From: Rhodohalobacter halophilus
GTDB taxonomy: Bacteria > Bacteroidota > Rhodothermia > Balneolales > Balneolaceae
Assembly: GCF_001715195.1 (NCBI RefSeq)
Contig: NZ_MDWE01000057.1
Location: 1-37,986, forward strand
DNA length: 37,986 nucleotides
Direction of reading: 5' to 3'
Below the pieces are notes generated by a model. It was not told where the DNA came from. It worked only from the letters and a program-made list of their open reading frames with translations, and did no database searches. How positions within the stretch are numbered: the stretch's first letter is position 1; every line of letters starts with the position of its first letter. Made by a program: the position numbers and the translations under genes. Below are positions 1,271 to 19,682 of the stretch, piece after piece.

Positions 1271-3206
1271 ATGAAGCCGAAAATTACTCTACTCTTACTC
1301 GCACTTCTGGGTTTCACTCTGCTTTTTTCAACTACTCTTACTGCACAGACCTCTGGCGACAGGGTGGTTGTGGAAGAAAGCGAGGATGGATTCAGGTTAT
1401 TGGTTAATGGGGAACCGATGATTGTTAATGGAATGAACTGGGACTACTTCCCCATCGGAACAAACCACTCATACAGCATATGGGATCAGTCACCCAATAT
1501 TATTCGTCAGGCACTAGACAACGAGATGCAGCTGCTCCAGAATATGGGAGTCAATGCGATTCGGGTCTATACCGGAATCCCAAAACATTGGATTGAGTAT
1601 ATCTACGACAATTACGGGATCTATACCATGTTGAACCATGCATTTGGACGATATGGAGTTACCGTTAATGGTGTATGGATGGAGAACACAGAATACTCTG
1701 ATGAACCTGTTGCCGAACTACTTCTATCAGAGGTAACCGAGCTGGCCAATGAATATAAAGGTACCAGAGGCCTTCTCCTCTATTTGTTGGGGAACGAAAA
1801 TAATTATGGCCTCTTCTGGGGTGGAGCTGAAACTGAGGACATTCCTGTTGAAGACAGAATTTCTACGGAAAGAGCACGCCATATGTACAGACTTTTCAAC
1901 GAGGCGGCGCTGGCCATGAAAGAAGTTGACCAAGACCGGCCGATTGCCATTGCCAATGGTGACCTGCTCTTTCTCGATCTTCTGGTTGAATACAGTCCCG
2001 ACATCGATATTTTTGGAGCAAATGTGTATCGGGGCGTTTCATTCACAGATCTCTTTGATCGTGTAAAAAATGAATATAACAAACCACTGCTGTTTACGGA
2101 GTTTGGCGCAGATGCATTTAACGTAATTAAAAATGAAGAGGATCAAGCTTGCCAGGCATACTACAAGCATGGCAACTGGAGAGAGATCTATGAATAAGCT
2201 GCCGGATTAGGAAAAACAGGGATTTCTCTTGGCGGATTCACCTTTCAGTTTAGCGACGGCTGGTGGAAATATGGACAAACCGAAGATCTTGATATACAAA
2301 ATACGGAAGCCTCGTGGGCTAATGGCGGATAAATGAGTGTGATTATGTTGAAGGTCAGAATAATATGAATGAAGAGTGGTTTGGAATAGCCGCTAAAGGC
2401 CCTACCAACAGCATGGGACTTTATGATCTATACCCGAGAGCCGCTTACTATGTATTGAAAGAAGCGCATGAATTTAACCCATACGCGCCGGGAACAACTG
2501 TAGAAGATGTGCAGGAGCATTTCAACAGCATCTCTATCTCGGAAGCTACCCTGCGAGCGAGAGGAGATAAAGCCGCCCTGCAAAGTGAAAGAAACAGCAA
2601 GATAAGGCTGAGCCGTTTTACAGCCAACTTCTCAACCTTTAATACCGGCGGAAGTCTGCTCACAACACCGGAGGAGGCGAACCCAAGAAATCAGGTTTAT
2701 CCTGATCAGCTCGGTTTTGATCATATGCAATCCATTTACGTTGGAGTTGAAGCGAACCCTGTACCAAACGTCAGAGCCGAAGTTGAGTTCAATGTTCTGG
2801 GTAACGTAGCCGGTAACCCGATTGATGAAATCTTTTATGAAAATCGAGGGCGCTCCGTCGAACTGATGGGCAGAGATAAAAACATTACTGCAGAATCTCT
2901 AAACAGGGTTCAGCTTTACAGTGCTACATACGATTGGAATCATGAGTGGTTTAACCTGACAGGGTTTTACCGCACCGGTCACTACCACTGGGGATATGAA
3001 GGCGACTTCTTCGGTCTTTACCCGGAGGCAAACTACGGTGAGCAGATCGACATCTATAACGGTATTGCACCTTTCGGTTTTGAAATGGATGGGAAGAAAG
3101 AGCTGGAAGGTTTAACACTCGCATTTGGTCCTGAATTGTGGTGGGGAGCAAACCCAGCCGTGTTGGTGAAGTACAGCCGCTCCGTCGGGAATTACGATCT
3201 CATATG
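1271..3206 (+). pseudogene. Secreted clan GH-A glycoside hydrolase (GH2-like TIM barrel) with C-terminal beta-rich domain, broken
   Basis: The first open segment (1271-2197) starts with a signal peptide ending near LTAQ and carries a TIM-barrel hydrolase with the acid/base motif GNENNYG and the nucleophile motif FTEFG, as in clan GH-A. The frame then meets a TAA at 2195-2197 but continues with matching sequence (AAGLGKTGISLGG) to about 2330. There, one missing base (GGA-TA-AAT, expected GGA-TAx-AAT) moves the coding frame into that of the second open segment (2365-3225), through YVEGQNNMNEEW. That segment finishes the hydrolase domain and adds a region rich in beta-strand-like sequence (VGVEANPVPNVRAEVEFNV). 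Homology seems to stop near GNYDL (about 3204), where IS-derived DNA begins. The gene therefore has one nonsense change, one frameshift and a lost 3' end. The substrate is unknown, and assignment to GH2 rather than another clan GH-A family is tentative. Confidence 0.82.
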
Positions 3207-4209
3207 TTTAAAGGACCAAACTTAACCAGGTGATCAAAGATTGCATAGGTACGTTGTAATCTTTACTCTGAGCCTATTTAGTTGGAATCGAGCCAACCTG
3301 GTACTTCCAAAATCCGTCTAAGCACTGTTTACTCAGATGCACTCGGTCAGTGTGGTATTGCCCAGCCAAGCCAAGCGCTACATGCAATCGCGGGGGCTGC
3401 GCAGTAAAACCGACAAAATCGATGCCTACGGGCTGGCGCTGATGGGCGCCGAACGAAAGCTTTCGAAGTGGGCCGGGATTGACCGGTTTTGGCGCAACCT
3501 GAGACAGCTCACCCGCACGCGTGGGAGCTTAATGGAGCAGCGCACCCAACTCCGTAATCAAGTTCATGCCCTGTCCCATAGCGGACAACCGGGTGGAGAA
3601 GCTGAGCAAGCATTGCAAGAAGCTATAGGAGTCATTAGCACCCAAATTGATCGGCTCACCCAGCGTATCTATCAGCAGTTGCGCTCCCGAAAAGATCTGT
3701 GCGAACAGATTGCCCGCCTGAGGAGCATTCCCGGGATTGGGCTACTCACCATTGCCACGGTGCTGGCCGAAACCAATGGATTTGCCCGTTTTAGCTCCAT
3801 TAGCCAGCTTATCAGCTATAGTGGCTATGATGTGGTGATCAAGGAATCCGGGAAGTGGTCCGGGAAACCCAAAATTTCCAAGCAGGGCTCTAAATATATT
3901 CGTCGTGCGATGTATATGCCGGCCGGAGTGATTGTTCGCAGAAAAAAAGGGCCCATGTACCAATTGTATCAAAGGCTGAAAAACAAACACGACATCAAAA
4001 TGAAGGCACACGTGGCGGTGCAGAAAAAGCTACTAACCTATATGTACACGCTGTGGAATAACAGGCAACAGTATGATCCCCAGGTCATCAAAGATCAACA
4101 AGCCAAACATCAAAAAAAAGTAGCCCTGCCAAAAGACAAGGCTACAGTAGATACATCACATGCGAAAGCATCATGATGTTCTTTTATGACCACAAAATAA
4201 AAGTTTATC
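3207..4209 (+). mobile_element. IS110-family insertion sequence, degraded
   Basis: The segment separates two truncated genes and contains an IS110-type transposase reading frame. The borders are approximate: the left is where the hydrolase sequence ends and the right is where the regulator sequence resumes (about 4210). I found no clear terminal inverted repeats or target duplication, which is normal for this family. Only about 130 nt lie left of the transposase ATG, and they hold a frameshifted trace of the missing N-terminus, so the copy is probably dead. Confidence 0.75.
3337..4176 (+). pseudogene. IS110-family transposase, N-terminally truncated or frameshifted
   Basis: The 279-aa open frame keeps the DxxD pair of the DEDD nuclease domain (KTDKIDA, D26 and D29), the helix-hairpin-helix segment RSIPGIGLLTIATVL, and the C-terminal transposase domain with the likely catalytic Ser185 (SKQGSKYIRRAMY). 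Family members are usually about 330-400 aa and begin with a GIDxHK-like motif carrying the first Asp, which is absent here. A piece of the missing part is readable in another frame at 3284-3307 (GIEPTWYF), resembling the family's E-A/P-T-G-x-Y motif. This points to a frameshift between about 3307 and 3336 plus loss of the start. The C-terminal tail is lysine-rich and less conserved. Confidence 0.8.
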
Positions 4210-7219: not shown

Positions 7220-10200
7220 ATGAGTGATCAGTCAAATCAAACTACTTTCTGGAAAAGTTTAAACGAACTTGCCAAAAATAAAGAGTACAAGAAGTACGCT
7301 GAAAGGGAGTTTCCCGAAAACGCTACAGAAATGACCGACCAGGTCTCCCGCCGCAGCTTCTTAAGGGTGATGGGTGCTTCAATTGCGCTGGCAGGTTTTG
7401 CATCGTGCCGTAAACCGGTACAAAAGATTTTACCTTATAATAAACAACCCGAAGACCTGGTACTTGGTGAGCCAAATTTCTACGCCACAAGTATGCCATT
7501 TCAGGATACGGTTACCGGGCTGCTTGTTGAGAATAATGAAGGCCGCCCAACAAAACTGGAAGGGAATGATCAGCATCCCTCAAGCGGCGGAAGAACAAAT
7601 ATTTACAATCAAGCGGGTATTTTGAACATGTACGACCCGGACAGGTCGCGCGCACCCCGCAATAACGGTGAGCAGGTTTCAGCTTCTGACTTTGTTACCT
7701 TTGCCTCTGAGCATTTTGCTGACCGAAACCGCAGAATTCTCTTTATAAGTGAAGCAAACTCCTCTCCTACTTACAATCGGTTGAAAGAGAATGCACTTCA
7801 AACGTTTTCTAATGCAGAATGGGTAACCTACGAACCGTTTAATGAGGACAATGCCCTTGAAGGAACGAATATGGCATTTGGCCGTCGGCTCAGAACGGTA
7901 AACCATTATGACAAGGCCGATGTAGTGGTTGCACTGAATGATGACTTTATGAGCCCTTACGGCCATAAAAACAGTGTTGAAAATGCTTTTAAACTAACCG
8001 GGCGGCGCAAAGTTACCAGCACTGAAGACTCCATGTCGAGAATCTACTGTGTTGAAAACTCCTTTACATCCACCGGTTCCTATGCCGATCATCGGCTCCG
8101 TCTAAAAACTTCAGAAATTGAACCGTTCACTTATGCCCTGGCAGCTAAACTGTCTGAAAGCCTGAGTGGTCTATCCGCATTTAGTAATGTCAGCAATGTA
8201 TTTACAAACCACGACTGGGTAAACCGATTAGCTGATGAGCTGATATCTAACGGCGGATCGTCCGTGGTAAGTATTGGATTTGACCACTCTGCTGCGGCCC
8301 ATGCAGCGGTTGCAGCAATGAACCGCGTTCTGGGTAATGCAGGTGAAACCGTAACCTATCATGAAGTACCATTCTCAGACGATCGCCATCAAACAGAGGC
8401 GTTTATTGAGGCTGTTAGAAATCTCAACAGCGGCGCATACGATACGGTAGTACTGGTTGGAACAAATCCTGTGTTTACAGCCCCTGCAGACTTAAACTTT
8501 TCTGATGCCCTTTCTAATGCCGGTACAACAATTCATCTGTCTGATTATGTGGATGAAACGTCAAAAGCGTGTAACTGGCACGTGAACAGAGCTCATTTCC
8601 TCGAAGCTTGGGGGGATGGCTACTCTTACACGGGATACAGATCGGTTATTCAGCCACAAATTCAGCCGCTATTTGACGGATTCAGTGAAGTTGAGTTTCT
8701 GAACACGCTGCTTACCGGTGAAGCGAGCAACGGTTACGATCTGGTTCAAGATACATGGAGAAACTACTTCACTTCTGACTTTAATAGACAGTGGGAAACA
8801 GTTCTGCACGACGGAATTGATAAAACCACTTCCGGATTTGATGCAGTGAATGTATCACTTCAATCCGGTTTTGCTTCCAACATCAGACCGCACCTTTCTG
8901 CATCGCCGATAGATGGAATTGAAATTAACATCAAGCCGGATGCAACCCTGTTTGATGGTCGATTTGCAAATAACGGATGGCTGCAGGAGCTCCCTGAGCC
9001 GATGACAAAAATTACCTGGGACAATGTAGCATTGATGAGCCCAACTACTGCAGAGTCACTCGGTCTGCCACCGGAACAGAGTTTTAAATCGAATGATGTG
9101 CCAACAGTTCGGATTTCGGCCGGTGGTAATACGATTGAAATTGCCGCCTGGGTTCTACCCGGACACGCAGATGACTCCATCACTCTTACGGTAGGATACG
9201 GTCGCCAAAATGTTGGCCGTGTGGCTGACGGAGTTGGAGTAGACACCTACCCTCTCAGAACCAGCGAGGCGATGTACTATCAGTCCGCACAGGTTGAGAG
9301 AACAGGTTCGATGTATGAAATTGCCTGCGTTCAGGATCACAACAATATTGAAGGCCGCGACATGGTTCGTGAGGCAACTCTCGAAGAATATCGCGAAAAC
9401 CCTGATTTTGCATCGTTTGAAAGCATTCATGGGTTTGCAGTTCCCGGCATGAAGGAAGCAAAAGAGAAAGGCGATGATCGCGGACCGGTTTCTCTCTTCA
9501 ATGAGCAGTATGGACCGGATCACCAGCCGCAATGGGGAATGGCAATTGACCTGAATGCCTGCTTTGGTTGTGGAGTTTGTACCATCGCATGCCAGGCTGA
9601 GAATAATATTCCGGTTATCGGTAAGCGTGAAGTGGGCCGAAGACGAATTATGCACTGGATTAGAACTGACCGCTACTTCGAAGGCGATCGGGATAATCCT
9701 AAAGTGTACCACCAGCCGGTACCGTGTATGCATTGTGAGCTTGCACCTTGTGAGCAGGTTTGCCCGGTTGCAGCCACAACACACAGTGAAGACGGCATGA
9801 ACCAGATGACCTACAACCGCTGTATCGGTACCCGATACTGTGCAAACAACTGTCCGTTCAAAGTTCGTCGATTCAACTTCTTTAACTATACCAAAGAGTA
9901 TTTGACAACCGGCGACGATCCGGAAATCATCCAGATGGCAATGAACCCGGATGTAACGGTTCGGTTCAGAGGTGTTATCGAGAAGTGCTCTTACTGTGTT
10001 CAGCGTGTTAACAAGGCTAAAATTCAATCTAAGATTGATACTGGATCCAAAAAACCTGCTGACGGTTCAGTACAGACTGCCTGCCAGCAAGCTTGCCCTG
10101 CAAACGCTATTACATTTGGAGACTTAACAGATCAAAACAGTGTAGTATCACAGCACAAACAGAATGAAAGAAATTATGTGATGCTCGAAGAGATGAACGT

Positions 10201-10258
10201 TCGTCCAAGAACATCATATTTGGCAAAAATACGAAATACTAACTCAGAATTGGCTTAA
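7220..10258 (+). CDS. actB: ActB, molybdopterin-oxidoreductase-like / iron-sulfur subunit of alternative complex III
   Basis: The 1012-aa protein fuses an N-terminal domain related to molybdopterin oxidoreductases (about 65-700) to a C-terminal ferredoxin-like domain (about 770-990). A Tat-type signal (SRRSFLR, 43-49) leads to a lipobox ending at Cys63 (LAGFASC), as in other ActB proteins. The cysteine groups are C781/784/787/791, C836/839/844/848, C868/874/878 and C923/926/955/959. That is 15 cysteines, which fits three [4Fe-4S] clusters and one [3Fe-4S] cluster. ActB homologues are reported to lack the molybdenum cofactor. It lies 50 nt downstream of actA and 32 nt upstream of actC. Confidence 0.96.
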   Translation: MSDQSNQTTFWKSLNELAKNKEYKKYAEREFPENATEMTDQVSRRSFLRVMGASIALAGFASCRKPVQKILPYNKQPEDLVLGEPNFYATSMPFQDTVTGLLVENNEGRPTKLEGNDQHPSSGGRTNIYNQAGILNMYDPDRSRAPRNNGEQVSASDFVTFASEHFADRNRRILFISEANSSPTYNRLKENALQTFSNAEWVTYEPFNEDNALEGTNMAFGRRLRTVNHYDKADVVVALNDDFMSPYGHKNSVENAFKLTGRRKVTSTEDSMSRIYCVENSFTSTGSYADHRLRLKTSEIEPFTYALAAKLSESLSGLSAFSNVSNVFTNHDWVNRLADELISNGGSSVVSIGFDHSAAAHAAVAAMNRVLGNAGETVTYHEVPFSDDRHQTEAFIEAVRNLNSGAYDTVVLVGTNPVFTAPADLNFSDALSNAGTTIHLSDYVDETSKACNWHVNRAHFLEAWGDGYSYTGYRSVIQPQIQPLFDGFSEVEFLNTLLTGEASNGYDLVQDTWRNYFTSDFNRQWETVLHDGIDKTTSGFDAVNVSLQSGFASNIRPHLSASPIDGIEINIKPDATLFDGRFANNGWLQELPEPMTKITWDNVALMSPTTAESLGLPPEQSFKSNDVPTVRISAGGNTIEIAAWVLPGHADDSITLTVGYGRQNVGRVADGVGVDTYPLRTSEAMYYQSAQVERTGSMYEIACVQDHNNIEGRDMVREATLEEYRENPDFASFESIHGFAVPGMKEAKEKGDDRGPVSLFNEQYGPDHQPQWGMAIDLNACFGCGVCTIACQAENNIPVIGKREVGRRRIMHWIRTDRYFEGDRDNPKVYHQPVPCMHCELAPCEQVCPVAATTHSEDGMNQMTYNRCIGTRYCANNCPFKVRRFNFFNYTKEYLTTGDDPEIIQMAMNPDVTVRFRGVIEKCSYCVQRVNKAKIQSKIDTGSKKPADGSVQTACQQACPANAITFGDLTDQNSVVSQHKQNERNYVMLEEMNVRPRTSYLAKIRNTNSELA

Positions 10259-10290: not shown

Positions 10291-11727
10291 ATGAGTAAAA
10301 CGTACGAATACGTTCCTGAACCCGCTCTTGTAAAGGGGAATCACGATTTTAAGAGTCTTACAGCGCTGATTACCGATATCAATATGCGTCCCACGCCTAA
10401 AGGGTGGTACATTGCATTTGGTATCTCCAATATTCTGCTGTTTGTACTTCTGTTCTCCATTGGATACCTCATTTGGGAAGGAACCGGAATTTGGGGATTG
10501 AACGCCCCCGCAGGATGGGGATGGGCTATTATTAACTTTGTATGGTGGGTTGGTATCGGTCACGCCGGAACCCTTATCTCCGCTATTCTTTTTCTTTTTA
10601 GGCAAGACTGGAGAACAGCCATTAACCGTTTTGCGGAGGCTATGACCATTTTTGCCGTAATGTGTGCGGGTATATTCCCGGCCATTCACGTGGGTCGTAT
10701 CTGGGTAATTTACTGGGTGTTCCCACTGCCAAATCAGATGGCAATGTGGCCCAACTTCAACTCTCCACTGCTTTGGGACGTATTTGCAGTTTCAACTTAC
10801 TTTACCGTTTCTCTTCTCTTTTGGTACGTTGGATTAGTACCTGATTTAGCTACGCTTAGAGATCGAGTAAAGAGCAAATTTGCCAAAATTGCCTACGGAA
10901 CCTTTGCACTTGGCTGGAGAGGAAGTAACCGACACTGGTGGAATTACGAGAAATCGTACATGATTCTTGCCGGTTTAGCTACACCTCTGGTACTTTCCGT
11001 ACACACCATTGTATCTTTTGACTTTGCCGTTTCACTGATTCCCGGATGGCACACAACCATTTTCCCTCCATACTTTGTTGCCGGTGCGGTATTCTCCGGT
11101 TTTGCAATGGTATTAACACTGATGATTATCGTTCGTAAAATCTATGGTCTGGAAGAGATTATGACCATCGATCACATCGAAAAAATGAACATCATTATTA
11201 TGGTTACCGGCTCCATGGTTGGTTTTGCCTACCTGATGGAGTTTTTCATCGCATGGTATGGCGGTGTTGAGTATGAGAAAGCCATTTTTATTCTCAGGGC
11301 AACAGGACCGTATGCCTGGGCCTACTGGATTATGATTGCCTGTAATGTGATCTCACCACAGGTATTTTGGTCTAAGAAATTACGAAGAAATGTAGCATTT
11401 ACATTTTTCATATCCATTGTAGTTAACATCGGAATGTGGTTTGAACGATTCGTAATTGCGGTTACATCGCTTTCAACCGACTTCCTTCCATCCTCGTGGG
11501 GATACTACTCTCCAACATTCTGGGATGTAATCACATACGTTGGAACATTTGGGTTATTCTTCACATTCTTCCTTCTCTTCCTCCGCTTCCTGCCAATGGT
11601 TGCAGTTGCCGAGTTGAAGGCAGTAATTCCACAAGCTGACCCACACAACTACGATGAAAACGGTGAGTTTAATCCACCAAAAGTTGAAATTCCTGAACCT
11701 GTAAAAGATTCTGCACAAAAAGGATAA
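10291..11727 (+). CDS. actC: ActC, NrfD-like quinol-binding membrane subunit of alternative complex III
   Basis: The 478-aa polytopic protein has about ten TM helices and belongs to the NrfD/PsrC family. The TM segments begin at about residue 38 ([17 protein letters not shown]). Conserved polar and His residues in the first helices ([26 protein letters not shown]) fit the quinol site known for ActC. It carries a hydrophilic C-terminal tail of about 40 aa. Its stop is 4 nt before actD. ActC and ActF are related, and ActC is the larger. Confidence 0.95.
11717..11724 (+). promoter_or_regulatory. Shine-Dalgarno-like site for actD inside the end of actC
   Basis: AAAAAGGA overlaps the last codons of actC and lies 7 nt before the actD ATG at 11732. 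Most starts in this window lack such a site, so it stands out and suggests coupled translation of actC and actD. Confidence 0.5.
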
Positions 11728-11731
11728 CGCG

Positions 11732-12283
11732 ATGAGTAAATCAACGGACGAAAATAACATGTACGGCATACTCGCTGAGTTCAAGAATCCAAAACAACTC
11801 ATCGATGCAGCCAAGAAAATCAACCAGAGTGGTTTTAAAAAGTACGATACATTCAGCCCCTTCCCTATTCACGGGATTGATAAGGCGATGAATCTTCCCA
11901 AATCGAAACTGGGCTGGATCGTTGTATCTCACGGACTTGTAGGTATGATTGGTGCTTTTTCCATGATCTATTTTATGATGGTGGCGGATTATCCACTCAA
12001 TATCAGTGGTAAAACGCTGATGAATATCCCGGCATGGGTACCGGTTATTTTTGAACTGACTGTACTTTTATCGGCATTTGGGGCTGTATTTGGAATGTTT
12101 TTCCTAAACGGACTCCCACGGTTTAATCATCCGCTTTTTACATCCGAGAACTTCAAAAAAGCAACAGATGACGGGTTCTTTGTATGCATTGAGGCAGAAG
12201 ATCCTCAATTTGACACAGACAAAGTTCAAACTCTGCTGAAAGAAGCCGGTGGAACTAATATCGAAGAAATTTACGACAACTAA
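11732..12283 (+). CDS. actD: ActD, DUF3341 membrane subunit of alternative complex III
   Basis: The 183-aa protein matches the DUF3341 pattern. A soluble N-terminal part opens with GILAEFKNPKQLIDAAKKI, two TM helices follow (about 62-86 and 105-130), and a C-terminal soluble part contains DDGFFVCIEAED. In alternative complex III, ActD packs against ActC and ActF on the cytoplasmic side. It sits between actC and actE as in the Rhodothermus operon. A 115-nt spacer with a possible hairpin separates it from actE. Confidence 0.94.
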   Translation: MSKSTDENNMYGILAEFKNPKQLIDAAKKINQSGFKKYDTFSPFPIHGIDKAMNLPKSKLGWIVVSHGLVGMIGAFSMIYFMMVADYPLNISGKTLMNIPAWVPVIFELTVLLSAFGAVFGMFFLNGLPRFNHPLFTSENFKKATDDGFFVCIEAEDPQFDTDKVQTLLKEAGGTNIEEIYDN

Positions 12284-12398: not shown

Positions 12399-13385
12399 AT
12401 GAAATTAAACATAACCAGAATTTGTGCCCTACTGTTGATCTCTGTCATGATGATCTCATGCCGTGGTCAAAAATCTGAAAAACCACCGATTCACCCTCAG
12501 CAGAATATGGACTTTCAGGACAGATTTAATGCCCAGGAAGAAAATAGATTTTTTGCAGATGGACGTTCAATGCGCACTCCCGTGGAGGGAACTGTTGCTC
12601 GCGGACAACTTCGTCATGATACGGTTCTGTTTGAAGGTGTGGATGAAAACGGTGAATTTGTTGATGAGATTCCCTTTGAACTGACAGAATCATTCCTATA
12701 CCGCGGGCAGGACAAATTTGAGGTTTACTGCCAGATGTGTCACGGCGGTACCGGTGATGGACAAGGAATTATTATGACAGGCGGTTACGGTTATGTGCCT
12801 GCACCTACCTTCCATCGGGAAGCCAGTTACAACATGCCGGATGGAGAGATCTATTCAGCAATTGCTAATGGAATTCGAAATATGCCTTCCTACGCTTCTC
12901 AAATAAAAGTTGAGGACCGTTGGGCTATCGTTGCTTATGTGAGAGCTTTGCAACGCAGCCAGAATGTGCAGGAATCAGAAATGGGACGGTATGATGTCGA
13001 TTTAGCCCAGCTGCGTCAAGCAGATGCTGAACGTAGAGCTGCCGAAGAAGAACGGGCTGCACAAAGAGCTGCGGCTGCCGGCGAAGAGGAAGTCTCTGCC
13101 GAAAGAGGTCAACAACTTATTACGGCAAATGCATGTAACGCCTGCCACTCAGTTGATGGAACATCATTGGTTGGACCCACTTTTGAAGGACTTTACGGAG
13201 CAGAACGTAACTTCGCTGATGGATCTTCTACCGTAGCTGATGAAGAGTATATTCGGGAATCGATTGTAGAACCCGGAGCTAAAATTGTGGAAGGATATGA
13301 CAATGTGATGGCTCCTTACGGTTATCTTTCCGACGGTGAAATTCAATCCATTATTGAGTACTTAAAAACACTTTCTGATAATTAA
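12399..13385 (+). CDS. actE: ActE, diheme cytochrome c lipoprotein subunit of alternative complex III
   Basis: The 328-aa lipoprotein has a signal peptide with Cys21 (MMISC) as the likely lipidated residue. The first cytochrome c domain has CQMCH at 111-115 and a probable axial Met162 (IRNMPSYA); this is the normal ActE domain. An Ala/Glu/Arg-rich linker (about 204-237) leads to a second cytochrome c domain with CNACH at 246-250 and probable ligand Met304. ActE of Rhodothermus has a single heme, so the second domain is an addition. It is about half identical to the C-terminal cytochrome c domain of the CoxB protein in this window. This suggests direct electron transfer toward the caa3 oxidase. 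Confidence 0.93.
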   Translation: MKLNITRICALLLISVMMISCRGQKSEKPPIHPQQNMDFQDRFNAQEENRFFADGRSMRTPVEGTVARGQLRHDTVLFEGVDENGEFVDEIPFELTESFLYRGQDKFEVYCQMCHGGTGDGQGIIMTGGYGYVPAPTFHREASYNMPDGEIYSAIANGIRNMPSYASQIKVEDRWAIVAYVRALQRSQNVQESEMGRYDVDLAQLRQADAERRAAEEERAAQRAAAAGEEEVSAERGQQLITANACNACHSVDGTSLVGPTFEGLYGAERNFADGSSTVADEEYIRESIVEPGAKIVEGYDNVMAPYGYLSDGEIQSIIEYLKTLSDN

Positions 13386-13412
13386 CACTGAGCGTTAAAA
13401 AGAAATAAATTC

Positions 13413-14612
13413 ATGGCTTCACACAGTCCAAACATAACTGATTCTGTTCAATTCCCGGCTCAAAAAGATCTGTCGAAGACCTTTTACGGCGTCGGTATCG
13501 TGGGACTCATTGCCAGTGCAGTGGGCTACTTTTTGGATGATTATCAGTTTTTCTTCTCATATCTGACCAGTTTTACTTACTTCACCTCATTTGCCCTGGC
13601 TGCACTGATCCTGGTGATGGTTCATCACATTACCAAATCATCCTGGGGCACCGTTATCAGAAGAATACCTGAGTCATTATTTTCTCGGCTTTGGCTTTGG
13701 GCGTTGTTCTTCATTCCAGTAATTCTTGGAATGAGCAACCTCTTTACTTGGACAAATACAGAATATGTAATGAACGACCCGATTCTGGCCGGTAAAACTG
13801 CCTACCTGAATGAGCCGTTTTTCATAATACGCCAGATCATCTATTTTGCTATTTGGGGATTTTTGGGTTATAAACTGCACAAAACATCCGTAGAGATGGA
13901 TCGCACCAAAAATTGGGGATTAACCGCCCTGCTCCGAAAGTTCAGTGCGCCCGGAATACTTCTTTTTGCACTTACCGTAGCATTTGCAAGTTTTGACTGG
14001 CTGATGTCTCTCGACGCTCACTGGTTTTCAACCATGTTTGGTGTTTACTTTTTTGCAATGAGTTTCCAGGCACTGTTTCCGTTTATTCTTTTAATGGTTT
14101 TTTGGATGCATAAAAACGGAATACTGAAAGATGTGATTGGGAAAGCACATATCTACGATCTAGGAGCCTGGTTCTTCGGTTTTACGGTATTTTATGCATA
14201 CATCGCATTTAGCCAGTTTCTGCTAATTTACTACGCTAACATACCTGAGGAGACACTCTGGTTTTACCACAGACTGGAAGGAAGCTGGGAGTTTATCACC
14301 TTTGCACTGCTTTTTGGACGTTTTGTCATTCCATTTATTCTTCTGCTCAACAGAGAGTCTAAGCACAACCATTTATTGCTTAAGATTACAGCCATTATGG
14401 TTATTGTTATGCACTTTATTGAGATCCACTGGATTGTAATGCCTACACTCCACCACCACGGAATGGCTATCAGTTGGCTTGATATTACCACACTTGTTGG
14501 ATTGGGTGGAATTTTCATGGGTATGTTTTTCCAAACACTGAAGAGTTATAACCTGGTTCCGGTCAACGATCCATATCTTCAGGATTCACTGCACAAAGAG
14601 TATCATCATTAA
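13413..14612 (+). CDS. actF: ActF, NrfD-like membrane subunit of alternative complex III
   Basis: The 399-aa polytopic protein has about ten TM helices and is related to ActC. Typical ActF segments are visible (FASFDWLMSLDAHWFSTMFG, MHFIEIHWIVMPTLHHHG), together with His and Asp residues of the kind proposed to form proton paths. It ends with a short hydrophilic tail. The start codon follows actE by 27 nt. It completes the actABCDEF set needed for a menaquinol:cytochrome c oxidoreductase. Confidence 0.95.
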   Translation: MASHSPNITDSVQFPAQKDLSKTFYGVGIVGLIASAVGYFLDDYQFFFSYLTSFTYFTSFALAALILVMVHHITKSSWGTVIRRIPESLFSRLWLWALFFIPVILGMSNLFTWTNTEYVMNDPILAGKTAYLNEPFFIIRQIIYFAIWGFLGYKLHKTSVEMDRTKNWGLTALLRKFSAPGILLFALTVAFASFDWLMSLDAHWFSTMFGVYFFAMSFQALFPFILLMVFWMHKNGILKDVIGKAHIYDLGAWFFGFTVFYAYIAFSQFLLIYYANIPEETLWFYHRLEGSWEFITFALLFGRFVIPFILLLNRESKHNHLLLKITAIMVIVMHFIEIHWIVMPTLHHHGMAISWLDITTLVGLGGIFMGMFFQTLKSYNLVPVNDPYLQDSLHKEYHH

Positions 14613-14633
14613 TCTATTTAATTGTCTTTTGTT

Positions 14634-15146
14634 ATGAGTAACAGCTCAAAAAAGTTTACAGAAGAAGAAAAAGCAGCCATTGCTTTAAAAGCTGCATCCG
14701 GTGAAGCCGGTAAGATTCAGGAACTTGCACAAGAACACGGTGTTTCTGAAGAAGATATCAGAAACTGGATGCGCGAAACCGGTGTTACAGACGTTAGTGA
14801 TGACGATGAAGACAGTGTGATCATTGATGTAACTGAAGAGTACGGTCGCTCGGTTGAGTTCGGAGCTTCTTATGACTTGCCAAATTACAGACGAATCGTT
14901 TTTTGGAGTGCTTTTGGTACCGGATTAGTTTTATTAATTGTTCTCTCTGTCTTTTATGTTCACAGCTATACAACAACTGTAGTAGCTGATCAATCAGCTC
15001 AGCAAAGCGAATTTTATGATATTCAGCAGATCCAGCAGCGAGATGCTGAAATTTTAAATAATTACGGCGTTGTTGACCCTGAAGAAGGAATTTATAGAAT
15101 CCCAATTGATCAGGCTATCTCAGAGATCATTAATGAAAACAATTAG
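14634..15146 (+). CDS. Small single-TM protein with HTH-like N-terminus, possible ActG-type accessory subunit
   Basis: I chose the ATG at 14634 (170 aa) over the in-frame TTG at 14622. The N-terminal ~55 aa look like a helix-turn-helix fold of the transposase/terminase type (EEEKAAIALKAASG...ELAQEHGVSEEDIRNWM). An acidic stretch (DDDEDSVIIDVTEE), one TM helix (about 87-107) and an outside C-terminal part ending YRIPIDQAISEI follow. The RIPID(R/Q)A motif occurs, from memory, in small proteins near ACIII and oxidase genes. Rhodothermus alternative complex III has a small single-TM subunit, ActG, so this could be its counterpart. The HTH-like part facing the cytoplasm is unusual for a respiratory subunit. 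Function is not established. Confidence 0.7.
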   Translation: MSNSSKKFTEEEKAAIALKAASGEAGKIQELAQEHGVSEEDIRNWMRETGVTDVSDDDEDSVIIDVTEEYGRSVEFGASYDLPNYRRIVFWSAFGTGLVLLIVLSVFYVHSYTTTVVADQSAQQSEFYDIQQIQQRDAEILNNYGVVDPEEGIYRIPIDQAISEIINENN

Positions 15147-15158
15147 CAGTATAATTTT

Positions 15159-16001
15159 ATGAAGAATGCACTGAGAATCGCAGCATGGATTTCAGTGTTT
15201 TTCATTTTTTCCACCATCTCGGTATCTGCTCAGTTAAATCAAGCAAAGCCGCAAATACTCGAAGAAATTGGTGTTGATGAAAAGCTCGGGGATACCATTC
15301 CCCTCGATCTGAAATTTGCCAACTCCGAAGGTGATTCAGTTCGCCTGGGTGATCTGATTGAAGAAGGAAAACCTGTTCTTTTAAATCCGCTTTATTACGA
15401 ATGCCCTACCCTATGTATTCTGGTGTTGGACGCTGTATATAAAGTTGTGGAACAGTTGGCCTGGTCTCCCGGAGACGATTATACGATTATCTCATTTAGC
15501 ATTGACCCGGAGGAAGGCCCAGAAGTTGCGACTCAAAACAAAGCATCCTATTTACGGTCACTCGACAGGCCACGGGCAGATGAAGGGTGGCACTTTCTAA
15601 CAGGTAATGAAGAAGAAATTAAACAGTTAACAGACGCAATCGGGTTTCGATACAAATATGATGAGCAAACCGGTGAATATGTTCACCTTGCCAGTATCAT
15701 GATGTTGAGCCCGGAAGGTGTCATTACCCGTTATCTATACGGTGCTACATTTAAAGAGTTTGATCTTCGGAATGCACTGTATGAAGCAGCCGAAGGTAAT
15801 ATTGGGTCTGCCATGGATAAGGTAATTATGTATTGCTTTACCTACGATCCCTCATCGCAAAGTTATGTACCCGTTGCGATGAACATTATGAAACTCGGTG
15901 GCTTGGCTACCGTGATTATTCTGGGTATATTTCTTGGAATTTTTTGGAGGCGCGAGCGCCGATCTACACAATCCTCAAAATCAATAACTGAAAATGAATA
16001 G
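15159..16001 (+). CDS. SCO1/SenC-family copper chaperone for cytochrome oxidase
   Basis: The protein has a signal peptide, then a thioredoxin-like SCO domain with the copper-binding CPTLC (C82, C86) and His176 (EYVHLASI). It ends with a C-terminal TM anchor (about 246-263) followed by a positively charged tail. SCO proteins deliver copper to, or reduce, the CuA site of oxidase subunit II. The next gene is that subunit and overlaps this one by 8 nt, which fits coupled translation. The C-terminal anchor after a cleavable-looking signal is common for SCO in this group. Confidence 0.93.
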   Translation: MKNALRIAAWISVFFIFSTISVSAQLNQAKPQILEEIGVDEKLGDTIPLDLKFANSEGDSVRLGDLIEEGKPVLLNPLYYECPTLCILVLDAVYKVVEQLAWSPGDDYTIISFSIDPEEGPEVATQNKASYLRSLDRPRADEGWHFLTGNEEEIKQLTDAIGFRYKYDEQTGEYVHLASIMMLSPEGVITRYLYGATFKEFDLRNALYEAAEGNIGSAMDKVIMYCFTYDPSSQSYVPVAMNIMKLGGLATVIILGIFLGIFWRRERRSTQSSKSITENE

Positions 16002-16935
16002 ACTTATTGAATATATGCTTCCACCGGCCAAAAGCACTCTGGCCGGAGAAACAGATGCATTGTTCGCTTTCATCAATATTTCCAGCTTTATATTTATTAT
16101 CGGTATCACTCTTACGATGCTCTATTTTGCCTGGAGATATCGAAGAAAGTCGGACGATGATGTTACACCGGTAATTTCTCACAACAATATTCTCGAGATT
16201 ACCTGGTCTGTTATCCCGCTTATTTTGGTCATCATTGTATTTAGCTGGGGCTATTCTACCTATATGAAAAAGATCTCCCCTCCATCTGATGCATATGAGG
16301 TACGTGTTGTTGGGAAAAGCTGGCTATGGGAATTTCACTACGACAATGGAAATGTAAGTGTTAACGAACTTCATGTTCCTGAAAATCGTCCGGTTAAGCT
16401 GATTATGAGCTCAGATGATGTCATTCACTCATTTTACGTGCCCGATTTTCGAGTAAAAATGGACGTTCTGCCCAACCGATACACTTCTGTATGGTTTGAA
16501 GCAACTGAGCAGGGAGAGTCTACCGTTTACTGTACAGAGTACTGCGGAACAGCTCACTCCAATATGCTTGCCACCGTTCATGTACATTCACAGGAAGATT
16601 TTGAAGATTGGCTGGAAACTTCCGGCGGCTCAGGTGAGGATCTCCCTCCTGTTGAACGCGGAGAGATGCTGGTACAACAAAATGCATGTATGACCTGTCA
16701 TTCCACAGACGGATCCAGACTCACAGGGCCAACCTTCCAGGGAGCATGGGGATCAGATGTTCCGCTTGAAAACGGCGAAACCGTACAATTTGATGAGAAT
16801 TATGTCCGTGAAAGTATTCTGGAACCGAATGCAAAAGTTCACCAAGGATTTCAGCCGGTAATGCCTTCATACGCCGGCACCCTGGACGACAGACAAATTG
16901 ATGCAATTATCGAGTATATAAAAACCCTACAATAG
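15994..16935 (+). CDS. coxB: Cytochrome c oxidase subunit II with fused cytochrome c domain (caa3 type)
   Basis: Two N-terminal TM helices (about 25-47 and 68-88) lead to a cupredoxin domain with a complete CuA site: H145, C180, E182, C184, H188 and M191. A C-terminal cytochrome c domain with CMTCH (232-236) and probable ligand Met290 defines the caa3 type. No signal peptide or lipobox cysteine is visible. The gene overlaps the SCO gene by 8 nt and ends 3 nt before coxA. Its cytochrome c domain is close to the second one of ActE. Confidence 0.96.
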   Translation: MNRLIEYMLPPAKSTLAGETDALFAFINISSFIFIIGITLTMLYFAWRYRRKSDDDVTPVISHNNILEITWSVIPLILVIIVFSWGYSTYMKKISPPSDAYEVRVVGKSWLWEFHYDNGNVSVNELHVPENRPVKLIMSSDDVIHSFYVPDFRVKMDVLPNRYTSVWFEATEQGESTVYCTEYCGTAHSNMLATVHVHSQEDFEDWLETSGGSGEDLPPVERGEMLVQQNACMTCHSTDGSRLTGPTFQGAWGSDVPLENGETVQFDENYVRESILEPNAKVHQGFQPVMPSYAGTLDDRQIDAIIEYIKTLQ

Positions 16936-16938
16936 ATC

Positions 16939-18678
16939 ATGGCTACATCCGAAGCATCCACTACTTATAAAAAAATTCAGGTACGGCGATATAAACCGGA
17001 AGAAAACCCTGAAAAGAATTATCTAAATGAGGAAAAAGGACTCTGGGCGTGGTTAACAACCGTTGACCATAAAAAAATTGGCCTGATGTACCTTGCCTCT
17101 ATTGCTTTTTTCTTTCTGGTTGGCGGTATTTTAGCGCTGATTCTCAGAACTGAGCTATGGACCCCTGCCAGAAGCTTCCTTGATGCTGACCTTTACAATC
17201 AGGTCTTTACCCTGCATGGGGCAATAATGGTATTCTTCTTCCTTGTGCCATCCGTGCCAACGGTACTGGGTAACTTTGTATTGCCGCTTCAGCTTGGAGC
17301 CAAGGATGTAGCGTTCCCCCGACTGAACCTTGCAAGTTTTTATATCTATCTGATCGGTGCCCTTTTTACACTTACCGCTATTTTAACAGGAGGTGTGGAT
17401 ACAGGGTGGACCTTCTACACTCCATACAGTGCAACTACCGGCGGAAATGTGATTATGATGACTCTCGGGGTCTTTATACTCGGGTTCTCATCCATTTTAA
17501 CGGGTGTAAACTTCATTGTAACGATTCATAAGCTTAGATCCCCCGGAATGACCTGGGCAAAGCTCCCGCTAAACCTGTGGGCACTCTACGCCACATCCAT
17601 TATTCAGATACTTGCTACACCGGTGCTCGCCATTACGCTGTTGCTTCTCACCATGGAGCGCGCTTTGGGCATTGGTATTTTTGATCCGGCCCTTGGTGGT
17701 GACCCGGTACTTTACCAGCACTTCTTCTGGTTCTACTCCCACCCTGCCGTTTACATTATGATTGTGCCGGGCTTCGGAATTATCTCAGAGGTTGTATCAA
17801 CCTTTTCAAAAAAGATCATTTTTGGGTACTGGGCGATTGCGCTCTCTTCTCTTGCTATTGCATTTATCGGTTTCCTCGTTTGGGGACACCACATGTTTAC
17901 AGCGGGTCAGTCATCACTGGCAAACCTGGTATTCTCATTCCTAACCTTTATGGTTGGTATTCCAACGGGTATTAAAATATTCAACTGGGTCGCCACGATG
18001 TATAAAGGCTCCATTGATATGAAAACCCCCATGGTCTACGTGATGATCTTCCTGTTTCTCTTTATGATTGGAGGATTTACCGGAATTATGGTAGGTGCAC
18101 TATCCGTAGACATACACCTTCACGATACATACTACGTAGTAGCTCACTTCCACTACGTAATGGTCGGCGGTATGGTTATGGCATTCCTTGGCGGAATTCA
18201 CTACTGGTGGCCAAAAATGTTTGGCAAGATGTACAGCGAGCTTTGGGCTAAAATTGCTGCCGGTATCTTATTTATCGGATTTAACATGACCTTCCTCCCG
18301 CAGTTTATCATGGGATCACAGGGTATGCCACGAAGATATTTCAACTACCTGGAGCAGTTTCAGCCGTTTCACCAGACATCTACGGTTGGAGCCTACCTGA
18401 TGGGTACCGGTTTCCTGATCGTAGCGATTTACCTGACTTACTCTTTGTTCAAAGGTAAAAAAGCCGGACCGAATCCTTGGGGCAGCCGGGCTCTTGAGTG
18501 GCAAACAGCTTCACCGCCGCCACTGCACAACTTTGAACATATTCCGGTCATCATAAATGGACCGTACGATTACCACAAGCCGATGTCCGAGTTTCAGCTT
18601 GGCGTAGCATCAAAGCATAACGGACACCACGCAGAAGAGACAGTGGACGTACCGGAATCAGCTCAAGAAAAAGCATAA
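16939..18678 (+). CDS. coxA: Cytochrome c oxidase subunit I, A2-type heme-copper oxidase
   Basis: The 579-aa protein has all core ligands: H93 and H405 for the low-spin heme, H403 for the high-spin heme, and H268, H317 and H318 for CuB, with Tyr272 in HPAVY available for the His-Tyr cross-link. The motif is FYSHPAVY rather than GHPEVY, so the D-channel glutamate is replaced by the Tyr-Ser pair that defines A2-type oxidases such as Rhodothermus caa3. A K-channel lysine is present in [11 protein letters not shown]. About 12 TM helices are visible, with a long hydrophilic C-terminus. It lies 3 nt after coxB. Confidence 0.97.
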
Positions 18679-18697
18679 ACCTAACTAACGAAAAATC

Positions 18698-19357
18698 ATG
18701 TCATCAACTTCTGCAACTGAGGAAAAAAGGCTGGATCACGTTCAGCATCATTTTGTTGACAGTGAACAGCAATTTGAATCTGCAAAAATGGGGATGTGGG
18801 TCTTTATCGTTACAGAGATCCTCATGTTTGGCGGGCTGTTTGTAGCCTACATCGTTTACCGTTCATGGTATCCTGAGCTCTACCTCGAAGCTTCAACACA
18901 GTTGAACGCTTTTTGGGGGATGGTCAACACCTTTGTACTAATTGGTAGTTCACTTACCGTGGCAATGGCTATCCGTTCAGCACAGCTGAATCAGATTAAA
19001 GGATTGATCTACAACCTTTACATCACCATTGGTCTTGCATTTACGTTTATGGTGATTAAATACTTCGAATACTCCGAGAAACTCGGCAAGGGTATTGCTC
19101 CCGGTGAGTACTACACCTACGATGGCCTTGAGCATGAAAAAGCAAACATCTTTTTCAGTATCTACTATATGATGACAGGGCTGCACGGGGTTCACGTAAC
19201 CATTGGTATCGGGTTGATGATCTGGCTTGTTGTTAAAGCCAAAAAGAATGTGTTCCACAGCGAATACTACACCCCCGTTGAGATCACCGGACTCTACTGG
19301 CACCTTGTGGATATTATCTGGATTTTCCTTTTCCCATTACTCTACCTGATCGACTAA
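18698..19357 (+). CDS. coxC: Cytochrome c oxidase subunit III
   Basis: The 219-aa protein has five TM helices and the subunit III signature (KMGMWVFIVTEILMFGGLF, GLHGVHVTIGIG, YWHLVDIIWIFLFPLLYL). The five-helix form is the usual one for bacterial caa3 enzymes. It starts 19 nt after coxA. Subunit III stabilises the oxidase core and the proton and oxygen entry paths. Confidence 0.95.
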   Translation: MSSTSATEEKRLDHVQHHFVDSEQQFESAKMGMWVFIVTEILMFGGLFVAYIVYRSWYPELYLEASTQLNAFWGMVNTFVLIGSSLTVAMAIRSAQLNQIKGLIYNLYITIGLAFTFMVIKYFEYSEKLGKGIAPGEYYTYDGLEHEKANIFFSIYYMMTGLHGVHVTIGIGLMIWLVVKAKKNVFHSEYYTPVEITGLYWHLVDIIWIFLFPLLYLID

Positions 19358-19379
19358 CCGAAAAAAATTCTTTAACACC

Positions 19380-19682
19380 ATGAGTGGACATCATATTTCA
19401 TCAGCCAAATTTCTGTGGGGAATCGGAATCGCACTCTTTTTCCTCACATTTGTTACCGTAGCCGTTACATGGATTCAAATTCCTGAACCATGGAATATTG
19501 TCGTGGCTATCGGAATCGCAGTTGTAAAAGCTCTACTGGTAGTACTCTTCTTCATGAACCTCTACTGGGACAGCAAATTCAACTCACTTTTGTTTATCTT
19601 CTCGTTAATCTTTTTTGGATTAATGATTGGGATTACCCTGTTGGATACACTTTTCAGAAATGATCCAACCCCGTTATTCTGA
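19380..19682 (+). CDS. Cytochrome c oxidase subunit IV family protein
   Basis: The small 100-aa membrane protein has three TM helices and the prokaryotic subunit IV (CtaF/CoxD-like) pattern, including VVAIGIAVVKALLVVLFFMN. It lies 22 nt after coxC and is the last gene before the terminator at 19703-19735. Such subunits aid assembly or stability of the oxidase. Confidence 0.9.
   Translation: MSGHHISSAKFLWGIGIALFFLTFVTVAVTWIQIPEPWNIVVAIGIAVVKALLVVLFFMNLYWDSKFNSLLFIFSLIFFGLMIGITLLDTLFRNDPTPLF

What the first reader, a model, noticed from the sequence alone, without database searches (positions are those of the whole stretch)
12399..16935. ActE and CoxB share a closely related C-terminal cytochrome c domain
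By eye, ActE residues 236-326 and CoxB residues 222-312 align almost without gaps with about half the residues identical, including NACxxCHSxDG, GPTF, YxRES, EPxAK and IIEYxKTL. Rhodothermus ActE has one heme, so the extra domain in ActE looks like a copy of the caa3 cytochrome domain (or the reverse), joined through an Ala/Glu-rich linker. It suggests a built-in wire between alternative complex III and the oxidase.
Basis: partly seen in the sequence, partly recalled or inferred. Interest (0 to 1): 0.72.

Follow-up and report, generated by a model that had tools for sequence, protein, structure and literature searches.

The report
Oxidase-type cytochrome domain grafted onto ActE
In this bacterium's respiratory chain, one enzyme complex carries an extra heme domain of the kind normally found on its partner oxidase, probably as a tethered wire between the two, and similar grafts appear to have arisen separately in other bacterial phyla.

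Summary
ActE (12399-13385) ends in a second cytochrome c domain, 45-49% identical to the C-terminal domain of CoxB and matching the Rhodothermus marinus caa3 cytochrome domain. In the window's family 86 of 92 genomes have a full-length two-domain match; one other genome of the order has it; 44 of 44 other Bacteroidota loci read have one-heme ActE. So the domain is old on CoxB and newer on ActE. Whether CoxB itself was the donor is unresolved. Multi-heme ActE also occurs in Myxococcota (two hemes; the two adjacent CoxB seen have none) and Planctomycetota (two to four hemes). These domains group with CoxB of their own phylum, so at least three separate grafts are likely, though rejection of a single origin is marginal (p 0.047). 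In the window's family the linker is 47-50 residues and the heme ligands are kept. The soluble carrier HiPIP is found in 3 of 92 family genomes but 32 of 36 in sister families. Best reading: a tethered relay from alternative complex III to caa3 oxidase. Electron flow is inferred, not shown.

The parts
12399..12953 (+). ActE residues 1-185: signal/lipoprotein start (Cys21) and the ordinary monoheme ActE domain
   Evidence: PDB sequence match to 6f0k_E, E 6.4e-67; Foldseek 6f0k_E; Cys21 invariant in alignment A2; the lipoprotein reading follows R. marinus ActE (PMC5928083 passages)
12954..13103 (+). ActE residues 186-235: Ala/Glu-rich linker, 50 residues
   Evidence: length 47-50 in 29 family sequences; AF2 helix 202-225, block-mean pLDDT 62-75
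13104..13385 (+). ActE residues 236-328: grafted caa3-type cytochrome c domain
   Evidence: 1w2l, E 4e-29; 1w2l, rmsd 1.2, target TM 0.91
15994..16935 (+). CoxB, subunit II of the caa3 oxidase, with COX2/CuA domain and C-terminal cytochrome c domain at 16651-16929
   Evidence: Pfam PF00116, PF02790, PF00034
6525..7169 (+). ActA, five CXXCH; no sixth N-terminal heme as described for F. johnsoniae
   Evidence: read from the sequence, Pfam cytochrome c7
7220..10258 (+). ActB (iron-sulfur subunit)
   Evidence: ORF; name by operon position and recalled family features
10291..12283 (+). ActC (10291-11727) and ActD (11732-12283)
   Evidence: ORFs, conserved beside ActE in the relatives
13413..14612 (+). 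ActF
   Evidence: conserved beside ActE
15159..16001 (+). Sco1-like protein
   Evidence: conserved in order; name recalled
16939..19682 (+). CoxA (16939-18678), CoxC (18698-19357), CoxD (19380-19682)
   Evidence: conserved in order

Best explanation
ActE here is the ordinary monoheme subunit of alternative complex III (ACIII) with a second, caa3-type cytochrome c domain joined to its C terminus by a linker of nearly constant length. Most likely the added domain is a tethered relay: menaquinol, ActB, ActA hemes, ActE N-domain heme, ActE C-domain heme, CoxB cytochrome heme, CuA. This would let ACIII feed its oxidase without a soluble carrier. Shown: domain type, motifs and ligands, linker length, operon, distribution, and separate grouping in three phyla. 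Inferred: order of electron flow, contact with CoxB, and any replacement of HiPIP.
For: Domain type. CXXCH and a Met in the ligand region in 31 of 31 ActE C-domains (a loose position test). Linker 47-50 residues in 29 sequences though only 41% identical; tails of 30 one-heme ActE vary from 15 to 42. Two-heme ActE beside one-heme CoxB in the window and in 30 of 30 fetched f1/f4 loci. Multi-heme ActE in two more phyla; in two of two Myxococcota loci with CoxB in view, CoxB has no heme. HiPIP in 3 of 92 family genomes against 32 of 36 of f2-f5. Known ACIII-to-oxidase transfer through ActE in R. marinus and through a mobile ActA heme domain proposed for F. johnsoniae (passages; section); diheme QcrC as link in actinobacteria that lack soluble cytochrome c (passages).
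Against: No redox, binding or complex-structure data. CoxB keeps its own cytochrome domain, so the ActE one is not obviously needed. ActE can be dispensed with in F. johnsoniae. The HiPIP pattern is one branch: f4 has both HiPIP and two-heme ActE, and family f19 shows HiPIP in only 5 of 27 genomes without the graft being seen there. Other f1 genomes hold more cytochromes c than the window's (up to 12 PF00034 matches in G065). AF2 pTM is 0.45, so domain placement is unknown.
Confidence: 0.6

Rival explanations
1. The grafted domain derives from a dehydrogenase-linked or stand-alone cytochrome of the caa3 type rather than from CoxB, and serves as a port for other periplasmic donors or acceptors.
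For: f1 ActE domains group with DUF6797-protein and stand-alone domains (95/91; 100/91). ActE domain scores slightly better than CoxB against three of four DUF6797 proteins.
Against: DUF6797 proteins with the domain are sporadic (10 of 244 class genomes among listed hits) while two-domain ActE is near-universal in the family; the grouping may reflect shared release from CoxB constraints; CoxB origin is not rejected.
Confidence: 0.25
2. The extra domain is an old duplicate without a role in electron transfer.
For: It evolves faster than the N-domain (52% against 71% mean identity), and CoxB has its own domain.
Against: Full-length two-domain match in 86 of 92 family genomes; heme motif kept in 31 of 31; linker length nearly constant; similar grafts in other phyla.
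Confidence: 0.08
3. Diheme ActE is ancestral and was lost in other lineages.
For: One origin of f1 and f4 ActE domains is not rejected (p 0.294), and f4 branches outside f1+f2+f3+f5 in a quick CoxA+ActF tree (SH-aLRT 91), which needs two gains or a gain and losses.
Against: One heme in 44 of 44 other Bacteroidota loci and in 34 of 79 named loci, including the Acidobacteriota and KSB1 ones. f1 plus Myxococcota as one clade is rejected (p 0.0159); all three phyla only marginally (p 0.0467).
Confidence: 0.07

Closest known systems
ACIII and caa3 oxidase of Rhodothermus marinus (PDB 6f0k; 1w2l)
   Same: Operon type, ActE N-domain, caa3 cytochrome domain on subunit II, ActE as donor to caa3
   Different: R. 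marinus ActE has one heme; here ActE also carries a caa3-type domain
ACIII-aa3 supercomplex of Flavobacterium johnsoniae
   Same: An extra tethered cytochrome domain on the ACIII side, proposed to shuttle to the oxidase
   Different: There it is at the ActA N terminus and the oxidase is aa3; here it is at the ActE C terminus and CoxB keeps its own domain
Diheme cytochrome cc (QcrC) of actinobacterial III2IV2 supercomplexes
   Same: Two cytochrome c domains in one subunit linking complex III to IV, in organisms lacking soluble cytochrome c
   Different: Part of a bc1-type complex, not ACIII; no shared origin of the graft claimed
ActE-like protein with four hemes in MBNT15 bacterium SHF-111 (PMC9386147, passages)
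   Same: ActE-like protein with more than one heme
   Different: In an ACIII-like cluster away from oxidase genes; type of the extra domains not told in the passages seen

Membership tests
ActE, monoheme subunit of ACIII | N-terminal domain homologous to solved ActE, in an act operon between ActD and ActF | tested here: met
   6f0k_E E 6.4e-67; order in window and relatives
ActE, monoheme subunit of ACIII | single heme c | tested here: not met
   two CXXCH, two Pfam cytochrome c domains; hence a variant
caa3-type cytochrome c domain | sequence and fold of the R. marinus caa3 domain, CXXCH and Met | tested here: met
   1w2l by sequence and Foldseek; ligand region
caa3-type cytochrome c domain | fused to oxidase subunit II | tested here: not met
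   the ActE copy is fused to ActE; CoxB has its own
Tethered III-IV electron link (as in F. johnsoniae ActA or QcrC) | electron transfer through the domain to the oxidase | not testable with these tools
   needs biochemistry or a complex structure
Tethered III-IV electron link (as in QcrC) | soluble carrier dispensable or absent | tested here: inconclusive
   HiPIP in 3 of 92 family genomes, but one small lipoprotein-like cytochrome remains in the window's genome and other family genomes have more

The most novel reading that the evidence does not exclude
One caa3-type cytochrome module is moved among the subunits that face each other across the ACIII-oxidase gap: on CoxB in most lineages, on both CoxB and ActE in Balneolaceae and some Planctomycetota (up to three extra copies in tandem), and on ActE with a heme-less CoxB in a Myxococcota lineage. 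In Balneolaceae it sits on a spacer of fixed length and goes with loss of HiPIP, giving a hard-wired respiratory chain.
Probability: 0.42. Interest if true: 0.76.

Novelty: new variant of a known kind. Interest (0 to 1): 0.6.

Why it matters
How ACIII hands electrons to its oxidase is answered differently for R. marinus and F. johnsoniae. A family in which the link seems built into ActE, with parallels in two other phyla, offers natural experiments: species with and without the domain, with and without HiPIP, and with the domain off CoxB. Named genera with isolates are among the loci (Rhodohalobacter, Fodinibius, Balneola, Gracilimonas).

Tried and rejected
Chance similarity: rejected. Recent copying or gene conversion: not supported; within-genome identity of the two domains is 32-54% and the f1 ActE rows form their own group in the trees. 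Reverse direction, ActE to CoxB: rejected by distribution.

Donor: not settled. The domain gives about 98 columns and many open forks. With outgroup rows the root fell among f1 CoxB rows. AU tests on 107 rows (111 less L136, L095, L135, L127 rows) did not finish, so I used 45 of the 111 rows, then 47 of 81. The 47-row set left out the DUF6797, stand-alone and f4 rows. Against my reading in the 81-row tree: CoxB of 3 of the 4 planctomycete genomes with multi-heme ActE joins their ActE domains, the fourth (L298) does not; 3 of 6 Myxococcota CoxB rows (2 of 5 genomes) join the Myxococcota ActE domains, L293, L295 and L308 do not; one planctomycete CoxB (L300) lies among the Bacteroidota rows; the f4 ActE domain joins neither f1 ActE nor f4 CoxB. 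L142 (Bacteroidota, outside the class) shows a short CoxB ORF without heme.

HiPIP as a strict correlate: rejected as proof (f4 and f19). Literature searches showed no report of this two-domain ActE in the held library; one paper tells of a four-heme ActE-like protein. The Nature 2018 F. johnsoniae paper is not held and is known here only through two other papers.
Full report
The observation. The window carries an act operon followed by cox genes on the + strand. ActE has two CXXCH motifs, CoxB one. BLASTP aligns ActE 218-325 with CoxB 204-312: 49 of 109 identical, one gap, E 3e-30. In the whole genome the ActE C-domain has one strong relative, CoxB (92.7 bits; next 18.1). Among PDB sequences the ActE N-domain is R. 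marinus ActE (6f0k_E, E 6.4e-67) and the C-domain is the R. marinus caa3 cytochrome domain (1w2l, E 4e-29). Foldseek on the AF2 model ranks 6f0k_E first and 1w2l fourth, the latter with rmsd 1.2 and target TM-score 0.91.

Distribution in Bacteroidota. Of 244 genomes of the class, 232 have a match to ActE (the row list was cut off). In the window's family (f1, 92 genomes) 86 have a full-length two-domain row; five (G080, G083, G084, G089, G090) have no match and G087 has no full-length one. G107 (family f4) has a full-length row. Reading the DNA, the window and 30 of 30 fetched f1/f4 loci have two-heme ActE and one-heme CoxB, and 30 of 30 loci of other families in the class have one-heme ActE. 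Fourteen further Bacteroidota loci with ActE in view, in and outside the class, have one heme. In a phylum sample of 394 genomes no listed hit that starts in the ActE N-domain runs beyond residue 239 outside f1 and f4 (list cut off, so weak cases could be missed). A same-genus contig has the length of a Rhodohalobacter sulfatireducens contig, so the window is Rhodohalobacter-like by inference.

Where the domain comes from. CoxB has it across the class and in other phyla, ActE in few lineages; so ActE gained it. A profile of both domains over 30 genomes gives strong matches (99 bits or more) in CoxB, in ActE, in proteins of about 930-960 aa in four genomes (one of them Pfam DUF6797), and in a stand-alone ORF next to ActE in two genomes of genus g3; others are under 47 bits. 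A class-wide search lists 10 of 244 genomes with the DUF6797-type protein matched through its cytochrome domain. Trees of about 98 columns keep f1 ActE domains together (81/83, 100/87, 90/50, 86/59, 99/99) and set them with the DUF6797-type and stand-alone domains (95/91, 100/91). Grouping with f1 CoxB (p 0.158), with class CoxB (p 0.195) or with f4 ActE (p 0.294) is not rejected. In a quick CoxA plus ActF tree f4 lies outside f1 and f2/f3/f5 (SH-aLRT 91), so f4 may be a separate gain.

Other phyla. Of these, 44 have two-heme ActE, one has four hemes and 34 one. L146-L187 (42 loci) are the window's family and f4; the rest of the multi-heme ones are L198 (Myxococcales MAG), L203 (Deltaproteobacteria MAG) and L206, Planctomycetales bacterium ZRK34 (complete chromosome CP050848.1), whose 702 aa ActE has the N-domain and three tandem caa3-type domains. 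In the order of L203, 4 of 16 genomes have hits over both domains. In the order of ZRK34, 98 of 121 genomes match and 4 hits run past residue 390. Regions read: planctomycetes L297, L298 and L299 have two-heme ActE and one-heme CoxB, and L298 has a stand-alone copy beside ActE; seven other planctomycete loci have one-heme ActE. In Myxococcota, L198 and L289 have two-heme ActE and CoxB of 224-225 aa without heme, beside a CoxA scoring 377-380 bits against 709-729 in five sister genomes with one-heme ActE, so the oxidase itself differs. L198 also has a 214 aa two-heme ORF between ActF and CoxB. The Bacteroidota-trained profile finds only the ActE domain in G541 and in G542 (MAGs, perhaps incomplete).

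Separate origins. In an 81-row tree the planctomycete ActE domains join CoxB of three of those four genomes (97/86), the Myxococcota ones join three CoxB rows of two sister genomes (95/85), and the f1 ones lie in a set of Rhodothermia rows (82/98). Planctomycete ActE and CoxB domains of these genomes mostly share GI-x-G where others have GL-x-G (sequences printed; L298 ActE is an exception). One clade of f1 plus Myxococcota ActE domains is rejected (p 0.0159), of all three phyla marginally (p 0.0467). Rows that do not fit are in Tried and rejected.

How it may work. The C-domains keep CXXCH and a Met in the ligand region in 31 of 31. The linker is 47-50 residues in 29 sequences, with 41% mean identity and about one gapped column per pair; the N-domain has 71% and the C-domain 52% identity; tails of 30 one-heme ActE run from 15 to 42 residues. 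AF2 gives a helix at 202-225 (block means 62-75) and a good C-domain (78-93), but pTM 0.45. I read this as a spacer of set length. In R. marinus ActE is the last heme of ACIII and a proposed direct donor to caa3, and an unassigned density lies above ActE (passages of PMC5928083). In F. johnsoniae a mobile ActA heme domain is proposed to shuttle to aa3, yet ActE is dispensable (PMC8552683, passages, section 3). In actinobacteria a diheme subunit links III to IV in the absence of soluble cytochrome c (passages of PMC8361435). A tethered relay is the simplest account.

Soluble carriers. HiPIP (PF01355) is found in 9 of 11 f2, 3 of 4 f3, 1 of 1 f4 and 19 of 20 f5 genomes, 32 of 36 in all, but in 3 of 92 f1 genomes, all weak (22-24.6 bits, one with a stop) (first seen in 21 genomes). 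In the window's genome PF00034 and PF13442 match ActE twice, CoxB, and one small protein of 156 aa with a lipoprotein-like start. Other f1 genomes have more. f4 has HiPIP with two-heme ActE, and f19 shows HiPIP in 5 of 27 genomes while its loci read here have one-heme ActE. The link is therefore one event on one branch: a lead.

Verdict. A graft of the caa3-type domain onto ActE is well supported, its donor undecided, its wire role plausible. Recurrence in other phyla and the HiPIP pattern go beyond the finding and make it testable.

Noticed in passing
window 14622-15146: Small protein between ActF and the Sco1-like gene: a transposase-type HTH (PF01527) at its N terminus followed by a likely transmembrane stretch; relatives in the same place outside the family are often shorter (about 110-136 aa in f2, f3, f5).
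   Followed up: partly
window 3337-4176: Transposase-like ORF (IS110-like by recall) directly after two ORFs (1271-2197, 2365-3225) that look like pieces of a sugar-hydrolase-type gene.
   Followed up: no
L043 2071-2412 and L130 6575-7039: Stand-alone one-heme ORF of the same domain type right after the two-heme ActE in two genomes of genus g3; a similar neighbour copy occurs in planctomycete L298 (2134-2667).
   Followed up: partly
L128 1370-4246, L126, L127, L129: Large proteins (DUF6797 in L128) ending in the same cytochrome domain, in 10 of 244 class genomes among listed hits.
   Followed up: partly
L292 4364-5914: Myxococcota-order CoxB with two cytochrome c domains in tandem (517 aa), beside a one-heme ActE.
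   Followed up: partly
L140 6588-7316, L093 657-1364, L217 7880-9298: CoxD-like ORFs with C-terminal extensions bearing one heme motif (L140, L093) or two (L217), so another oxidase subunit may also carry cytochrome domains.
   Followed up: no
L210 9972-10871: A 300 aa ORF between ActF and the Sco1-like gene with a CoxB-type cytochrome domain at its C terminus, next to a CoxB with its own; the two domains are sisters in the tree (99/90).
   Followed up: partly
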